Origin: Terriglobia bacterium
GTDB lineage: Bacteria; Acidobacteriota; Terriglobia; Acidiferrales; UBA7541
Direction: 5' to 3'
Assembly: GCA_020073705.1 (NCBI GenBank)
Contig: JAIQES010000026.1
Span: 1-58,971, forward strand
Length of the DNA stretch: 58,971 nucleotides
Both the position numbers and the translations under genes were made by a program. Numbering within the stretch: the stretch's first letter is position 1; each line of letters begins with the position of its first letter. Shown here in pieces: positions 3,950-21,129 of the stretch. Under the pieces are notes generated by a model. That model saw nothing but the letters and a program-made list of their open reading frames with translations, was not told the origin of the DNA and searched no databases.

Positions 3950-4180
3950 TTGGCCAATAACGCCTATAAAAAGCTTCGTGAGCTTCTTGTTGCCGCTCGT
4001 GGGGAGGCAGACCTTACGCAAGTAGAGCTCTCTTTGCGGTTAAGGCGTCCACAATCCTTCGTCTCAAAGTACGAACGAGGCGAGCGCCGTCTCGACGTGA
4101 TTGAGTTCGGTGAAGTCGCTCGCGCACTCGGGATTGACCCCCTACGAATTCTGGGCAAGTTCTACCGGGAGATCTCATGA
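3950..4180 (+). CDS. XRE-type controller (C) protein of the restriction-modification system
   Basis: A 76-residue single-domain helix-turn-helix protein. The HTH covers about residues 20-55, with LTQVELSLRLRRPQSFVSKY and then GERRLDVIEF, typical of Cro/C1-type C proteins. Its stop codon overlaps the ATG of the downstream endonuclease by 4 nt, the classic C-R arrangement, in which C first activates its own and the R gene and later represses, delaying endonuclease until methylation is complete. The TTG at 3950 is the only start that keeps the full fold. The adjacent C-box-like site supports the role. Confidence 0.85.
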   Translation: MANNAYKKLRELLVAARGEADLTQVELSLRLRRPQSFVSKYERGERRLDVIEFGEVARALGIDPLRILGKFYREIS

Positions 4181-4785
4181 AGATCGTCCACATAGAGACG
4201 ATTTTGAGCTGTGGGGCATACGCGAAGTCAGCCCATTGGACAGAGACCCGGGACGCTATTCATAAGGCAGTCCGCAAATGCGCGTGGCCTCCTGGAAGCG
4301 GTTCGTTCACGATCTATCCGCAGAGTGGGAAGAAACGTGGTGAAGGTAACGGCGTCGTTCCAATCAGAAGCGAATTCATCAAAGAGCTTAAGAAACTGGA
4401 ATGGACAATTGAGGGGAAAGCCAAGAATCTCCTAAACCAGCAGCTCGGAGATTTCGATGCGGTGCTACCCGGCCCGGAAGGTCCCGTTGTCGTCGAGTGG
4501 GAGACGGGGAATATCTCATCGAGTCACCGCTCGATGAACAAGCTCACGATGCTCGTGGCCGACGGGATCATCGCCGCCGGCATTCTCGTCGTTCCCTCGC
4601 GAAAGCTCTACGTGTACTTAACGGATCGTATCGGCAATTACAAAGAACTCGAACCATATTTAAAGTTGTGGAAGTCGGTGCCATGCAAGACCGGAGTGCT
4701 GGAGATCGTCGTCATTGAGCAAGACTTCGAAAGCAAAAAGGTACGGAAAATCCCGAAGACCACGGCTGGCCGGGCGAAAGGTTAA
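4177..4785 (+). CDS. Type II restriction endonuclease, BamHI-like
   Basis: 202 residues that follow BamHI closely: NGVVPI at 58-63, then VEWETGNISSSHRSMNKL at 106-123, then YLTDRIGNYKELEPY at 147-161. The BamHI catalytic residues D94, E111 and E113 correspond to D94, E107 and E109 here. The BamHI major-groove contacts N116, S118, R122, D154 and R155 correspond to N112, S114, R118, D150 and R151. Conservation of these residues suggests cleavage at GGATCC, an inference from recalled BamHI structure work. The start overlaps the controller gene by 4 nt. The 3' end overlaps the convergent methyltransferase gene by 4 nt. Confidence 0.88.
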   Translation: MKIVHIETILSCGAYAKSAHWTETRDAIHKAVRKCAWPPGSGSFTIYPQSGKKRGEGNGVVPIRSEFIKELKKLEWTIEGKAKNLLNQQLGDFDAVLPGPEGPVVVEWETGNISSSHRSMNKLTMLVADGIIAAGILVVPSRKLYVYLTDRIGNYKELEPYLKLWKSVPCKTGVLEIVVIEQDFESKKVRKIPKTTAGRAKG

Positions 4786-5660
4786 CGTTCGACGTAATCG
4801 TCGTTCCTATGTGACCGGATCTCGCCACTCTCAAGCCGATCAATTATTTCTTGCGCGAAATCTATCTCCATACCAATCCACTCACGTCCCTTCTTTTCGC
4901 ACACGGCAAAGGTAGTGCCGCTTCCTCCAAAGGGGTCAAGGACGAGGCTTCCCGGCTCCGTAGACATTTCTACTACGCGGTCCAGGATTTTTGTGGAGAG
5001 CGCATTCGCGCGGCGTTCCTTTGACTTGAACTTCCAGTGACGAACCGGAGGGACGTCGGTCCAGACATCTTTCAGGTTCACGCCCTTCGGATTCATGGCA
5101 TCCCGGTGACCACCATAGTCCTTAACCTCACCACCGCAGTGCCTACAGGTTTGTATGGGCGTGCGGATGCGCCGGAACGTTTTTGGTTTTCCCTTCGTGT
5201 AGTACAGCAAACTGTAATGGCTGGGATGTAGTCTTCCGGGAATCGGAAGGCACGCCGAGATCTCAACCGCGATCCAATGCCTGAAGTTCATGCCGAGTTC
5301 GGTGAGATGCGAGCCAAGCAAAACGTTCCACTTCGGAAGATTGTAGAGAAAGAATGCCCCACCCGGCTTGATCGTACGCACGCATTCCGCGACCCACTCC
5401 CTACACCACTTCAAATAGTCATCTTCCGATCTCATGTCATTGGAATTTTTCCCGTAGCGTTTGCCGAGATTGAACGGAGGATCGGCAAAAACAGTGTCTA
5501 CGACCGAGTCCCGAATATGCGGGAGGACGGCCAGGCAGTCACCAGAAAAAAGCGCTCCGAACGCGGAGACATAGGTCGACGCGAGCTTGGTGCCCGGCTT
5601 AAGATAAGGGTCTACGTCAAAGACCCGCGTCTCTAATTTCAAGGCTGACTGGCGCGCCAA
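4782..5660 (-). CDS. Type II DNA methyltransferase, beta class, partner of the BamHI-like enzyme
   Basis: 292 residues. Catalytic motif IV is DPPF at 60-63 and precedes the SAM-binding motif I DPFGGSGTT at 242-250, the beta-class order seen in M.BamHI-type N4-cytosine and some N6-adenine enzymes. A CRHC pair near 172-175 sits inside the target-recognition region. It should protect host DNA at the sites cut by the neighbouring endonuclease; DPPF leaves N4C versus N6A open. The TTG at 5660 is the likely start, with GAGG about 8 nt upstream. The gene points towards the C-R pair and ends inside the endonuclease stop region. Confidence 0.88.
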   Translation of the reverse strand: MARQSALKLETRVFDVDPYLKPGTKLASTYVSAFGALFSGDCLAVLPHIRDSVVDTVFADPPFNLGKRYGKNSNDMRSEDDYLKWCREWVAECVRTIKPGGAFFLYNLPKWNVLLGSHLTELGMNFRHWIAVEISACLPIPGRLHPSHYSLLYYTKGKPKTFRRIRTPIQTCRHCGGEVKDYGGHRDAMNPKGVNLKDVWTDVPPVRHWKFKSKERRANALSTKILDRVVEMSTEPGSLVLDPFGGSGTTFAVCEKKGREWIGMEIDFAQEIIDRLESGEIRSHRNDDYVER

Positions 5661-5702: not shown

Positions 5703-5779
5703 ACAGACGCAAGGATAATCAGAATGGACAATCAGGATACCACGTCCTACAGTAAGTCCACGTGCTAGACAATATTGTC

Positions 5780-5956
5780 GGGTGCGCCAGGCTTTTTGAA
5801 CGACTTTGAAGTTCGGGTGCCCCATCCTTGCGGTTTGTGCAAGGGTGGGGCTTTTGGTTTTAGTAACCGAACCGTTGAAGTCAGTCGAGGGGATCGATTG
5901 AGACGAGCCCCGGCTGCTTCTTCGCAGAGAACGAGAAACCACTCCAGGGCTAGTCC
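5780..5956 (+). repeat. Intergenic repeat copy A with a 13-bp hairpin
   Basis: First of two direct copies that flank the amidohydrolase gene; the second is at 7462-7632. Shared blocks include CGACTTTGAAGTTCGGGTGC, TAACCGAACCGTTGAAGTCA and GACGAGCCCCGGCTGCTTCT. Its core is a hairpin, GCCCCATCCTTGC pairing with GCAAGGGTGGGGC across a 7-base loop, followed by CTTTTGGTTTT. Stem changes relative to copy B keep pairing. Function unknown: a terminator-like element, a structured RNA or a non-autonomous mobile repeat are all possible. Confidence 0.8.
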
Positions 5957-6030
5957 TCCGGATGGGAAACCAGTTTTCGCTTGACGGGATTCATGCGCAC
6001 GTACAGCCGTTTCTCGACTCCTTCGCCCGC

Positions 6031-7293
6031 TCAGGGGCGCGGGGCGACGTTCATTCGGTTAAGCGCAACCCTGCCATTGTTGACGACCATCAGCACGTCC
6101 GCTATATGCCGAATATCTTCAAGAGGGTTGCGGCCTACAATCACAAAATCCGCTTCGTATCCGGCGCGGATCGAGCCGGTCCGCTTGTCTACGCCCAATT
6201 CTTCCGCCGACGCAGAGGTTCCCGCTTTGATCGCATCCATCGGCGGTAGGCCATCGCCCGCGAGTTCGATGATTTCATCGGCCATCGTTCGATTGTTCTT
6301 AGCAAAATAAGTGGTGTCCGTGGCCGCCACGATCTTGATTCCCATTTTCCATGCCCTCCCGACCAGTTCACGCGCTATCGGCAGCATGGCCCGGCCGCGC
6401 ATCTGCAGGACGGGGTCATCGTATTCACCCTCGGGATCGGTCATATCCACGGTCGCCGTTACGGTGGGATCGAGATAGACGCCCTTCTCCTTCATGAGCC
6501 GAAGCGTGTCATCGCTCAGGTATGTACCGTGCTCAATGCAGTGCACGCCAGCGCGCACCGCAGCCGCGGCGCCTTCGTCGCCGTGCGCATGTGCCACTGT
6601 CCACAGTCCGGCTTTGTTCGCTTCGTCGACAATTGCAGCCAGCTCATCGTCGTTGAAAATGCGGATGCGAGGATCGGTGTCCGGCAAGCCTGCCCGTTCG
6701 GTGGCCATCACCTTGATCCGGTTCACGCCGCGGCTCGCCATTTCGCGGACCATCCGGCGGACATTATCCGTTCCACGCACTCCGCCCAGGAGGTCGGCAT
6801 CCTGTGGAAAATCAAGAAAATAGTCATCGGCCGGATGAGTTCGAATGTGGTAACCCGCAGCGACAACGTCTGGCACGTCCACGACGCCTTTATGATTCAG
6901 CTCGCGCATGCCAATGTCCGCGAAATGATTGACGCCGGCCTCTCCAACCGTCGTCGCGCCCGAACGAAGAGCTCGCCTGGCGGCCGCTAGATCAGCCACG
7001 TGTACATGCGCATCTACGAAACCTGGTAGCAACCAGTGGCCCTTGAGATCAATCACGGTGCTTTGGCCGGAGGCCGCTTCATGCCCGATGCTTTGAATGT
7101 GGCCGTTCACTACAACTACGGTAGCGTCCATTAAGGGAGCATTTGAAATCCCGTCGATCAAATTGGCGTGCACGAGTGTTAGTGAGTCGCTTCCTCCCGT
7201 CTGAGCATCGACCTGCAACGCGAGCGCCAACAAGAACAACATGAACAAACCACAGGCCGGGAGTGCGACGAGACGGCTGAGAGTTGTCTTCAT
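6031..7293 (-). CDS. Secreted metal-dependent amidohydrolase
   Basis: 420 residues. A signal peptide (about residues 1-30, hydrophobic core LFMLFLLALALQV, cleavage after VDA) precedes an imidazolonepropionase/prolidase-type amidohydrolase. Visible metal-site features are DAHVHV at 95-99, the Lys of IKVM near 194 (a candidate carboxylated lysine), AHAHG near 235-238, IEHGTYL near 254 and ATDTTY for the catalytic Asp. These enzymes cleave amide or peptide-like bonds in the periplasm; the substrate cannot be read from sequence. The start has a strong Shine-Dalgarno (AGGAGA). The gene stands alone between two direct copies of an intergenic repeat. Confidence 0.85.
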   Translation of the reverse strand: MKTTLSRLVALPACGLFMLFLLALALQVDAQTGGSDSLTLVHANLIDGISNAPLMDATVVVVNGHIQSIGHEAASGQSTVIDLKGHWLLPGFVDAHVHVADLAAARRALRSGATTVGEAGVNHFADIGMRELNHKGVVDVPDVVAAGYHIRTHPADDYFLDFPQDADLLGGVRGTDNVRRMVREMASRGVNRIKVMATERAGLPDTDPRIRIFNDDELAAIVDEANKAGLWTVAHAHGDEGAAAAVRAGVHCIEHGTYLSDDTLRLMKEKGVYLDPTVTATVDMTDPEGEYDDPVLQMRGRAMLPIARELVGRAWKMGIKIVAATDTTYFAKNNRTMADEIIELAGDGLPPMDAIKAGTSASAEELGVDKRTGSIRAGYEADFVIVGRNPLEDIRHIADVLMVVNNGRVALNRMNVAPRP

Positions 7294-7461
7294 GCGATTT
7301 TCTCCTAATCCGGAATTTTCGATTTAGGTCTCGGCTCGCGCATCGTACGCTTCTCCTGCCCCGGACACAACGAATTTGCCACCAGAGGAGGCCCCCAGCG
7401 AGATCAGCGGGGTTCCGACGGCTCGTTTTTGCCCGTCTGACAAGTCCCGCTTGCTGGGCGG

Positions 7462-7632
7462 GTGGCAGAACCTTTGAGCGACTTTGAAGTTCGGGTGCCC
7501 AACGCTTGCGGTCTTCAAGCGTGGGGCTTTTGGTTTTCGTAACCGAACCGTTGAAGTCAGTGGAAGAGAACGATTCGGACGAGCCCCGGCTGCTTCTTCG
7601 CATAGAACGAGAAACTACTCCAGGGCCAGTCC
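7462..7632 (+). repeat. Intergenic repeat copy B with covarying hairpin
   Basis: Second copy of the ~170 bp repeat, same orientation as copy A. The hairpin is GCCCAACGCTTG pairing with CAAGCGTGGGGC (one mismatch), loop of 7. Relative to copy A a T-G pair has become C-G and a C-G pair has become G-C, so the stem is kept while sequence drifts. An indel between copies breaks any shared reading frame, which argues against a protein product. Confidence 0.8.
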
Positions 7633-7721
7633 TTGGGAGATGCGCACCCAGCGGGCAACAAACCAAGGAACGAAAAAGATCATCTAACAGATAGTGAAGT
7701 GGAAGGGAGGTGGAGGTCGCC

Positions 7722-19216: not shown

Positions 19217-20122
19217 TTATGACTTAGGTTGCGGCACTGAATAGGTCGCCGGTACGTCCGTTCCGCAGTGTTGACAGACCCCGAAGGTCTCGAAGCCGAA
19301 AAGGAGTACCCAGCGGCCATTGCGCTGCACGAACATGCGGGTGTTGACATCGTGCAGCCCGTCGCGCGTGGGCCATTTGGCTAGCAGTATCACCGCGCCG
19401 TCGAAGTCGAACATTTTCGCCACTCTCGTGGGATCATTTATCGCCGGCGGAGCCCCCGCCTGCTTCTGCTTCGTGAGGAACGCGATCCGATCCGCTTTGG
19501 TGAGCACCCTCTTACTCAAGGACATGGTCATTTCGAAATCCTCTGCGGTACTCTTGTCGTAGGCATCCACGTCCCAGTAGGCGAGGCCCATAATCACGCC
19601 GTGCATAGACTCCAGCACTTCTTTTTCGATCTGGTTCTTCGGCTCATAAGGGTAATGCTTGCAGGGATTGTAACAATCGGCGTTGACGCCGGGCGGCAGC
19701 GGCGGGCGAGCTGGCGCGGATTCCATCACGAGCTCCTGATAGATCAGTGTGCGCCAGCCGGCGGGGCGCTTTATCCAAATGCGCATCACTTTATCTTTGT
19801 CGCGCTCGGCTTTGACCACGGCCACTTGGCCGTAGAGCTTCACGTTGGGTTTCACGTCGGCATCCATTACCGGAGGGAATTTCTGCAGAACCTCAGCGCG
19901 AGTCCATTGATTGGCATTCGCGTCCACCCACAGAAAATCCGGTTCGATAGCTTTGCCCACCGCAACTTTATCGTTCTTGGCGATGGCCTGGAGAAAGGCC
20001 GCGTCGGCAGCCAGCGCGGCCTGGCTATCGTCGGCCGCGGCAACCGGCCTGAGTTCGACAGCGCCCACGATGCCAAACCACACGACGCCGATGACGACTG
20101 CATTTCTGATGAAACGATTCAT
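19217..20122 (-). CDS. Secreted SnoaL/DUF4440-like protein, paralog 1
   Basis: 301 residues. A signal peptide (NAVVIGVVWFGIVGAVEL core, cleavage near VAAAD) precedes two NTF2-like cone folds: the first at about 30-140 with FLQAIAKNDKVAVGKAIEPD and FLWVDANANQWTRAEVLQKF, the second at about 170-285 with GLAYWDVDAYDKSTAEDFEM and GRWVLLFGFETFG. It is about 60 percent identical by eye to the next gene upstream, a tandem duplication. Unlike its twin it has a C-terminal tail with a CQHC pair, a possible metal or disulfide site. Function unknown. The ATG at 20122 has GGAG upstream. Confidence 0.72.
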   Translation of the reverse strand: MNRFIRNAVVIGVVWFGIVGAVELRPVAAADDSQAALAADAAFLQAIAKNDKVAVGKAIEPDFLWVDANANQWTRAEVLQKFPPVMDADVKPNVKLYGQVAVVKAERDKDKVMRIWIKRPAGWRTLIYQELVMESAPARPPLPPGVNADCYNPCKHYPYEPKNQIEKEVLESMHGVIMGLAYWDVDAYDKSTAEDFEMTMSLSKRVLTKADRIAFLTKQKQAGAPPAINDPTRVAKMFDFDGAVILLAKWPTRDGLHDVNTRMFVQRNGRWVLLFGFETFGVCQHCGTDVPATYSVPQPKS

Positions 20123-20283
20123 TGCACACACTCCTGTGGATTTTCTTATGACGGCCTGTGCAGGGGAATCATACTCCCATGATAGCGCTTACGGCAATGT
20201 GCAAGCTCTCCCGTACCCGGGGACGCGCTGCTACGCTGAAGTTCCACTCGCGGTGAACGCTCGCGGTGAACCGCTATCGCTGC

Positions 20284-21129
20284 CTATCCGATCGTCTCGA
20301 AGCCGAAGAGGAGCACCCAGCGCCCATTGCGCGGCACGAACATGCGGGTATTGACATCGTGGAGCCCGTTGCGCGTAGTCCATTCCGTACTCAGTACCAC
20401 CGCTCCGTCGAAGTCGAACATTCGCGCGAAAGTTACCGGAGCGGGTATGGAAGGTGCAACCGCCGCCTGCTTCTGCCGCGCGAATCCGGTGAGCCGCTCG
20501 GCTTTGGAGATCAACTTAGGGCTCGTGGAGACGGTCATCTCGAAATCGTCCGCAGTGTTCGCGGCGTAGGAATCGCCGTCGTAGTAGGCAAGGCCAATGA
20601 TTACGCCGTGCAAAGCGGCCAGCACATCCCTCTCGGTCTGGTTCTTGGGCTGGTAGGGGAAATTCTTGCAGGGATTGTCACATTCGGTGCTGGCGCCCGG
20701 CGATAGCGGAGGCGCAGCCGGCGCCGATCCCAGGGCGACCTCCTGATAAATCAGGGCGCGCCAGCCTGCGGGATGCTTAACCCAAATGCGCATAACTTTG
20801 GCTTTGTCGCGGTCGGCTTTGACCACTGCCACCCCGCCGTAAATGTTCACTTTTGGTTCCACGTCGGCGTTCGCTACCGAAGACAATTTCTGCAGAACCC
20901 GGGCCCGGGTCTGCTTGTTGGCATTCGCGTCTACCCACATAAAGTCCGGTTCGAGAAGTTTGTCCACCGCCGCTTTGTTGCCCTTGGCGATGGCCTGGAG
21001 AAAGGCCGCATCGGCAGCCAGCACCGCCTGTTTCTCATCGGCAGCGACAACCGGCCTGAGCTCGACAGCGGCCACGATGCCAAAGCACACGACGCCAATA
21101 ACGACCGCATTCCTGATAAAACGATTCAT
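20284..21129 (-). CDS. Secreted SnoaL/DUF4440-like protein, paralog 2
   Basis: 281 residues, tandem paralog of the downstream gene with the same signal peptide (MNRFIRNAVVIGVV is identical) and the same two NTF2-like domains. It stops right after GRWVLLFGFETIG and therefore lacks the cysteine tail of its neighbour. Upstream of each copy the DNA is also similar (ATCATACTC and GATAGCGCT blocks), so the duplicated unit included the promoter. A clear AGGAGGGGG precedes the ATG. Both may be enzymes, binding proteins or inhibitors in the periplasm; nothing in the sequence decides. Confidence 0.72.
   Translation of the reverse strand: MNRFIRNAVVIGVVCFGIVAAVELRPVVAADEKQAVLAADAAFLQAIAKGNKAAVDKLLEPDFMWVDANANKQTRARVLQKLSSVANADVEPKVNIYGGVAVVKADRDKAKVMRIWVKHPAGWRALIYQEVALGSAPAAPPLSPGASTECDNPCKNFPYQPKNQTERDVLAALHGVIIGLAYYDGDSYAANTADDFEMTVSTSPKLISKAERLTGFARQKQAAVAPSIPAPVTFARMFDFDGAVVLSTEWTTRNGLHDVNTRMFVPRNGRWVLLFGFETIG

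What the first reader, a model, noticed from the sequence alone, without database searches (positions are those of the whole stretch)
5780..7632. Two ~170 bp direct repeats with a covarying hairpin flank one gene
Copies at 5780-5956 and 7462-7632 share long identical blocks. Their hairpins differ, yet both stems stay paired (T-G to C-G and C-G to G-C), which indicates selection on structure. Indels shift the reading frame between copies, so protein coding is unlikely. Flanking a single amidohydrolase gene, the pair could allow excision or mark a composite unit.
Basis: seen in the sequence. Interest (0 to 1): 0.65.

Follow-up and report, generated by a model that had tools for sequence, protein, structure and literature searches.

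The report
Two decayed ends of a transposon
The two repeats are broken leftovers of a small bacterial jumping gene (the tail of its enzyme gene plus the DNA hairpin that marks its end) that happen to lie on either side of an ordinary enzyme gene.

Summary
The repeats are real: about 180 nt, 85-89% alike, at 5779-5962 and 7459-7640. They are not a non-coding RNA or a gene cassette. Each is the 3' end of a REP-associated tyrosine transposase (RAYT/TnpA-REP, Y1 family) element: a degenerate terminal repeat, a GGGTG-tagged hairpin and, on the minus strand, the last 24-45 codons of the transposase gene. Copy 1 has an in-frame TAG. Both copies lack the catalytic first half of the gene and the left end. 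Related elements in the same genus (acidobacterial metagenome genomes) are about 770 nt long, with terminal repeats and inverted hairpins on both sides of the gene. The window's genome holds only fragments of this family, including a 331-nt internal-deletion derivative. Excision or mobilisation of the amidohydrolase has no support. RAYT-like genes with terminal repeats in Acidobacteria are already in print (PMC3733652). The less expected part lies outside the window: all 8 resolvable hairpin pairs of this family join one left end with one right end, as deletion derivatives of the transposon would.

The parts
5779..5795 (+). degenerate terminal repeat (right end) of element copy 1; family consensus CGGGTGGCCCGGCCTTT
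   Evidence: aligned with right ends of related elements
5813..5857 (+). GGGTG-tagged hairpin (REP-like, right-end type), copy 1; stem 5819-5851
   Evidence: covariance model R1, 67.9 bits, E 1.5e-11 (this sequence was one of 30 used to build the model); fold z -6.4; right-end type by flank
5881..6021 (-). 3' remnant of a RAYT transposase gene, copy 1: stop codon at 5881-5883, in-frame TAG at 5950-5952; keeps the Y..NP motif, lacks the HUH half
   Evidence: tblastn of intact RAYT from G004:C82 to 6018-5887, 66%, E 2e-16; NF047646 REP_Tyr_transpos E 0.0057, 16.5 bits, far below its 80-bit cut-off; whole-genome search 5887-6021
6031..7293 (-). amidohydrolase gene (Amidohydro_1) between the two remnants; probably a bystander
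   Evidence: Pfam PF01979 E 4.9e-37; about 80% orthologues elsewhere without repeats
7459..7475 (+). degenerate terminal repeat (right end) of element copy 2
7491..7533 (+). GGGTG-tagged hairpin (right-end type), copy 2; stem 7497-7527
   Evidence: R1 50.2 bits, E 4.2e-8 (also among the 30 model sequences); fold z -3.8; right-end type
7557..7643 (-). 3' remnant of a RAYT transposase gene, copy 2 (stop codon 7557-7559)
   Evidence: tblastn 7643-7572, 83%, E 2e-10; 7572-7646 in the whole-genome search

Best explanation
Each repeat is the 3' end of a decayed RAYT-type transposon: terminal repeat, GGGTG-tagged hairpin, short spacer and the last codons of a Y1 transposase gene, read on the minus strand. 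In the intact state the HUH/Y1 transposase would recognise the folded single-stranded hairpins and the GGGTG-containing ends and move the element through single-stranded DNA, as IS200/IS605 relatives do (this step is inferred from the family, not shown). The window copies are two descendants of one element sublineage. Both have lost the left end and the catalytic half and are dead. Stem covariation reflects past selection on a transposase-recognised DNA hairpin. The amidohydrolase lies between them by the accident of where the element landed or was locally duplicated.
For: Intact RAYT proteins match both copies in the right frame and place: copy 1 E 2e-16, copy 2 E 2e-10. 200 shuffled queries reach at most 29.6 bits, against 67.8 and 50.4. 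Of 12 RAYT genes or fragments at least about 49% identical to one of four RAYT queries (the four queries are among the 12), 10 have the hairpin just 3' of the gene on the opposite strand, exactly as in the window, and 9 have an inverted one on the 5' side. L061 and L074, flanked on both sides, were not used to build the model. Elements of 773 and 770 nt in G004 have terminal repeats matching the consensus at 17 and 15 of 17 positions at both ends. Both window hairpins carry right-end type flanks. The window genome holds only fragments of this family: C51 twice, C18 and C48. From the D of the DW motif to the last codon, 8 of 24 codons differ between the copies and all 8 changes are non-synonymous, one of them the TAG, as expected of a dead gene.
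Against: Pfam gave no hit to the short remnants, and NCBIfam only one weak hit to copy 1. No activity is shown. The terminal repeats of the window copies are degenerate. How two remnants came to flank one gene in the same orientation is not resolved.
Confidence: 0.93

Rival explanations
1. The amidohydrolase came in on a circular DNA carrying an element end, by a single crossover with a resident element end. This would leave direct repeats on both sides.
For: Direct repeats of one sublineage (85% to each other, 64-70% to the others) flank the gene; its orthologues sit in unrelated neighbourhoods.
Against: No empty site and no donor found. The copies differ by about 15% and are truncated at different points. 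Two separate insertions or a local duplication explain the same layout.
Confidence: 0.15
2. The repeats form a composite transposon in which two transposase-recognised ends mobilise the amidohydrolase.
For: Two right-end hairpins flank one gene.
Against: Both are right ends in the same orientation, with no left end in the window and no intact transposase of this kind found in the genome. Orthologues elsewhere lack the repeats.
Confidence: 0.03
3. The repeats are a structured non-coding RNA or regulatory element of the amidohydrolase (riboswitch, terminator).
For: Stable covarying hairpin; copy 1 scores as terminator-like on the + strand.
Against: No Rfam family. The T-run is on the strand opposite to the amidohydrolase. 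The hairpin borders transposase genes and lies at many unrelated loci.
Confidence: 0.03

Closest known systems
TIRYT / TIRtron elements of Acidobacteria (Di Nocera et al. 2013, PMC3733652; section 16 and find passages read)
   Same: RAYT-like genes flanked by terminal inverted repeats, in Acidobacteria; in Koribacter versatilis one such repeat (ORF1552) is a dispersed family.
   Different: The window copies are 5'-truncated and dead.
REPtrons / RAYT (TnpA-REP) with REPs and REPINs (PMC8266576 introduction and section 29 read; PMC3116915 find passages)
   Same: Y1/HUH transposase gene bordered by tagged palindromes; related palindromes dispersed as inverted pairs.
   Different: The tag here is GGGTG, not GTAG. 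Copies or fragments of the gene lie at several loci per genome, with distinct left and right ends and terminal repeats, whereas these papers describe RAYTs as mostly single-copy with no evidence of mobility.
IS200/IS605 insertion sequences (from PMC6006769 and PMC8266576 passages)
   Same: Small HUH/Y1 element with subterminal hairpins at two ends.
   Different: The protein matches REP_Tyr_transpos (RAYT); the ends here also carry inverted terminal repeats.

Membership tests
RAYT / TnpA-REP transposase | Homology to the Y1 transposase family with HUH and Y..NP motifs | tested here: inconclusive
   Homology of both remnants is clear, and copy 1 keeps YVRMNP. The HUH half is missing from both, so the window copies cannot meet the full motif set; the intact relative L060 has NHIH and YMHMNP.
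RAYT / TnpA-REP transposase | Gene flanked by inverted tagged palindromes | tested here: met
   3' side 10 of 12, 5' side 9 of 12 related genes or fragments; the window copies keep only the 3' one.
REP (GTAG-tagged) | GTAG tetranucleotide at the foot of the palindrome | tested here: not met
   The foot is GGGTG in all 30 rows of A2, which were mostly selected for it, and in most rows of the BLAST-selected A4.
TIRtron | RAYT-like gene between terminal inverted repeats | tested here: met
   L060 17/17 and 17/17, L067 15/17 and 15/17 matches to the terminal consensus; the window copies keep one degenerate end each.
TIRtron | GGGGWSAS motif shared by many published TIRs | not tested
   Seen in the paper only; not searched for here.
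Composite transposon | Two functional ends able to mobilise the interior | tested here: not met
   Two right ends, same orientation, no left end in the window.

The most novel reading that the evidence does not exclude
This acidobacterial family is a living form of the ancestral state proposed for REPINs: a RAYT-type transposase still inside a self-mobile, multi-copy element of about 770 nt with terminal repeats and distinct left and right ends. Its gene-less hairpin pairs arise by internal deletion, each keeping one left and one right end, and the C48 locus of the window's genome (still carrying 35 transposase codons) is a caught intermediate.
Probability: 0.45. Interest if true: 0.6.

Novelty: new member of a known kind. 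Interest (0 to 1): 0.33.

Why it matters
In itself the window pair is ordinary transposon debris. The family around it may matter. Where REPINs come from, and whether RAYTs were ever self-mobile, is discussed as open in the passages read (PMC3116915, PMC8266576). Here left and right ends, autonomous-looking elements, deletion derivatives and remnants can be read side by side in one bacterial genus.

Tried and rejected
Rfam: no RNA family at the repeats. Pfam on the short remnants: no hit. Tail-only DNA search in 101 genomes: only the two window copies, so the tail is not a dispersed repeat at the DNA level; the homology shows in protein. Synteny at ComM in five genomes: only ComM and genes on its far side shared, so no empty site. 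Flank searches for empty sites of the C15 and C48 elements in 6 genomes: relatives absent or too diverged, uninformative. The MFS neighbour (best match in another genome 44%) gave no help with synteny. Terminator idea: wrong strand for the amidohydrolase.

Limits. The 30 rows of A2/A3 were picked mostly by a hairpin finder, so overstates pairing; one search is the less biased count. R1 contains the two window copies and rows from seven RAYT loci. The terminal-repeat consensus was made by eye and then located in the same elements. The scans with R1 scored only 62 candidates per genome and 150, so counts are lower bounds. In one search, 15 inverted pairs without a full gene were examined: 8 gave left plus right; the other 7 (G001, another hairpin type) had no recognisable left/right flanks, one of them (L171) weakly scoring right on both sides.

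Full report
What is there. Two direct repeats of about 180 nt lie at 5779-5962 and 7459-7640 on either side of an amidohydrolase gene (6031-7293, minus strand; Pfam PF01979). They are 89-90% alike in ungapped blocks, 88% by BLAST with E 7e-54 and 85% over 188 aligned positions.

The hairpin half. The hairpin with its GGGTG foot is a dispersed family. BLAST with copy 1 finds matches in 38 of 101 genomes. A covariance model (R1) finds matches in 54 of 101 genomes at E up to 0.01, 15 of them in the window's own genome, and 20 at E up to 0.05 in a deeper own-genome scan. Stem pairing is kept through double changes at 6 of 12 pairs in 34 rows chosen by BLAST only, and at 9 of 13 pairs in 30 rows mostly chosen by a hairpin finder.

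The gene half. On the minus strand the other half reads as the end of a transposase. Copy 1 has ...YVRMNPVKRKLVSHPED*PWSGFSFSAKKQPGLVSIDPLD* and copy 2 has SPKDWPWSSFSFYAKKQPGLVRI..., followed by a stop. An intact RAYT from genome G004 matches them at 66% (E 2e-16) and 83% (E 2e-10). The best of 200 shuffled queries reached 29.6 bits, against 67.8 and 50.4. NCBIfam NF047646, REP-associated tyrosine transposase, matches copy 1 at E 0.0057. From the D of the DW motif to the last codon, 8 of 24 codons differ between the copies, all 8 non-synonymous, one being the TAG of copy 1.

Intact relatives. Of 12 RAYT genes or fragments with at least about 49% identity to one of four RAYT queries (the queries themselves are among the 12, duplicates of the window not counted), 10 carry the hairpin just 3' of the gene on the opposite strand and 9 carry an inverted one 5' of it. 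The exceptions are L051 (5' hairpin in the other direction), L056 (none), L064 (contig ends at the gene; its 5' match, counted among the 9, is weak, E 0.02) and L072 (a 5'-truncated remnant). In all, 12 of 36 sources searched had any match, 38 matches in 122,631 bases. Nine control loci of 127,197 bases had none. The window's arrangement, with the gene on minus and the hairpin on plus beyond its stop codon, is the same.

Ends. Flanks of the hairpins fall into a left and a right type. Both carry a terminal repeat, consensus CGGGTGGCCCGGCCTTT, about 95 nt outside the left hairpin and 25-30 nt outside the right one. Elements with a gene measure 773 nt (L060, intact gene) and 770 nt (L067, broken gene). 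Eight elements without a full gene measure 241-415 nt. All 8 pair one left with one right end, in both chromosomal orientations. Seven further pairs of another hairpin type in G001 could not be resolved. Both window hairpins, and those at C18 and C29 of the same genome, are right ends.

State of the family in this genome. With the G004 RAYT as query the window's genome gives 5 places: the two window remnants, a third 3' remnant at C18, a 5' fragment of 35 codons at C48, and a distant Y1 gene at C7 (30% identity). The C48 fragment sits between a left and a right hairpin in a 331-nt element, an internal-deletion derivative. C15 holds a 241-nt left-right pair without gene. No intact gene of this kind was found. 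The same-genus genomes G005 and G001 appear to be Terriglobia/Acidobacteria metagenome assemblies, judged by equal contig lengths.

Why the amidohydrolase is between them. Orthologues at about 80% in G001, G005 and G023 have different neighbours, no such hairpin and no transposase remnant. The ComM neighbourhood of five relatives shares none of the nine genes tested from 4.1 kb to 14.5 kb of the window. So there is no evidence that the repeats move the gene, and no empty site to show the order of events. The two copies are each other's closest relatives (85%, against 64-70% to the C18 and G004 sequences), so one element sublineage gave both, by two insertions or by local duplication. Single-crossover capture of the amidohydrolase remains possible.

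Known context. RAYT-like genes between terminal repeats (TIRYT, TIRtron) were described in Acidobacteria in PMC3733652 (section 16 read), with one dispersed repeat family in Koribacter versatilis. Another Y1 class, with secondary structures in about 600 copies in Solibacter usitatus, is mentioned in PMC6006769 (passages). PMC3116915 (passages) proposes that REPINs derive from the ends of an ancestral IS200-like element and calls RAYTs apparently incapable of self-mobilisation; PMC8266576 (introduction and section 29) reports no evidence of tnpA-REP mobility. A search for TIRtron or TIRYT found 2 papers, and one for at least three of RAYT, REPIN, internal deletion and miniature inverted-repeat found 3; of these I read only PMC3733652 and PMC6006769, in part. 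I therefore make no claim that left/right deletion derivatives are unpublished.

Verdict. The thing is a pair of dead right ends of a known kind of transposon. The family they belong to looks like a good place to test how REPINs arise.

Noticed in passing
window 4177-5660: A BamHI-type restriction endonuclease gene (PF02923, E 1e-40) next to a DNA N4/N6 methylase gene (PF01555, E 6e-41): a likely type II restriction-modification pair beside copy 1.
   Followed up: no
window 19217-20131 and 20284-21129, minus strand: Two neighbouring paralogous proteins, seen as a 300-nt direct repeat at 74%; unrelated to this finding.
   Followed up: partly
L104 1344-1674 (G000:C48): 331-nt element with left and right hairpins and 35 transposase codons inside: an internal-deletion derivative of the RAYT element.
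   Followed up: yes
L069 3973-4377 (G007:C65): Four hairpins of this type in a row, all in the same orientation, a direct array unlike the inverted pairs elsewhere.
   Followed up: no
L051 1842-2056 and 2910-3208 (G012:C51): Hairpins repeated about every 84 nt on one strand around a RAYT gene, an apparent tandem array of which part is read as an N-terminal extension of the open frame.
   Followed up: no
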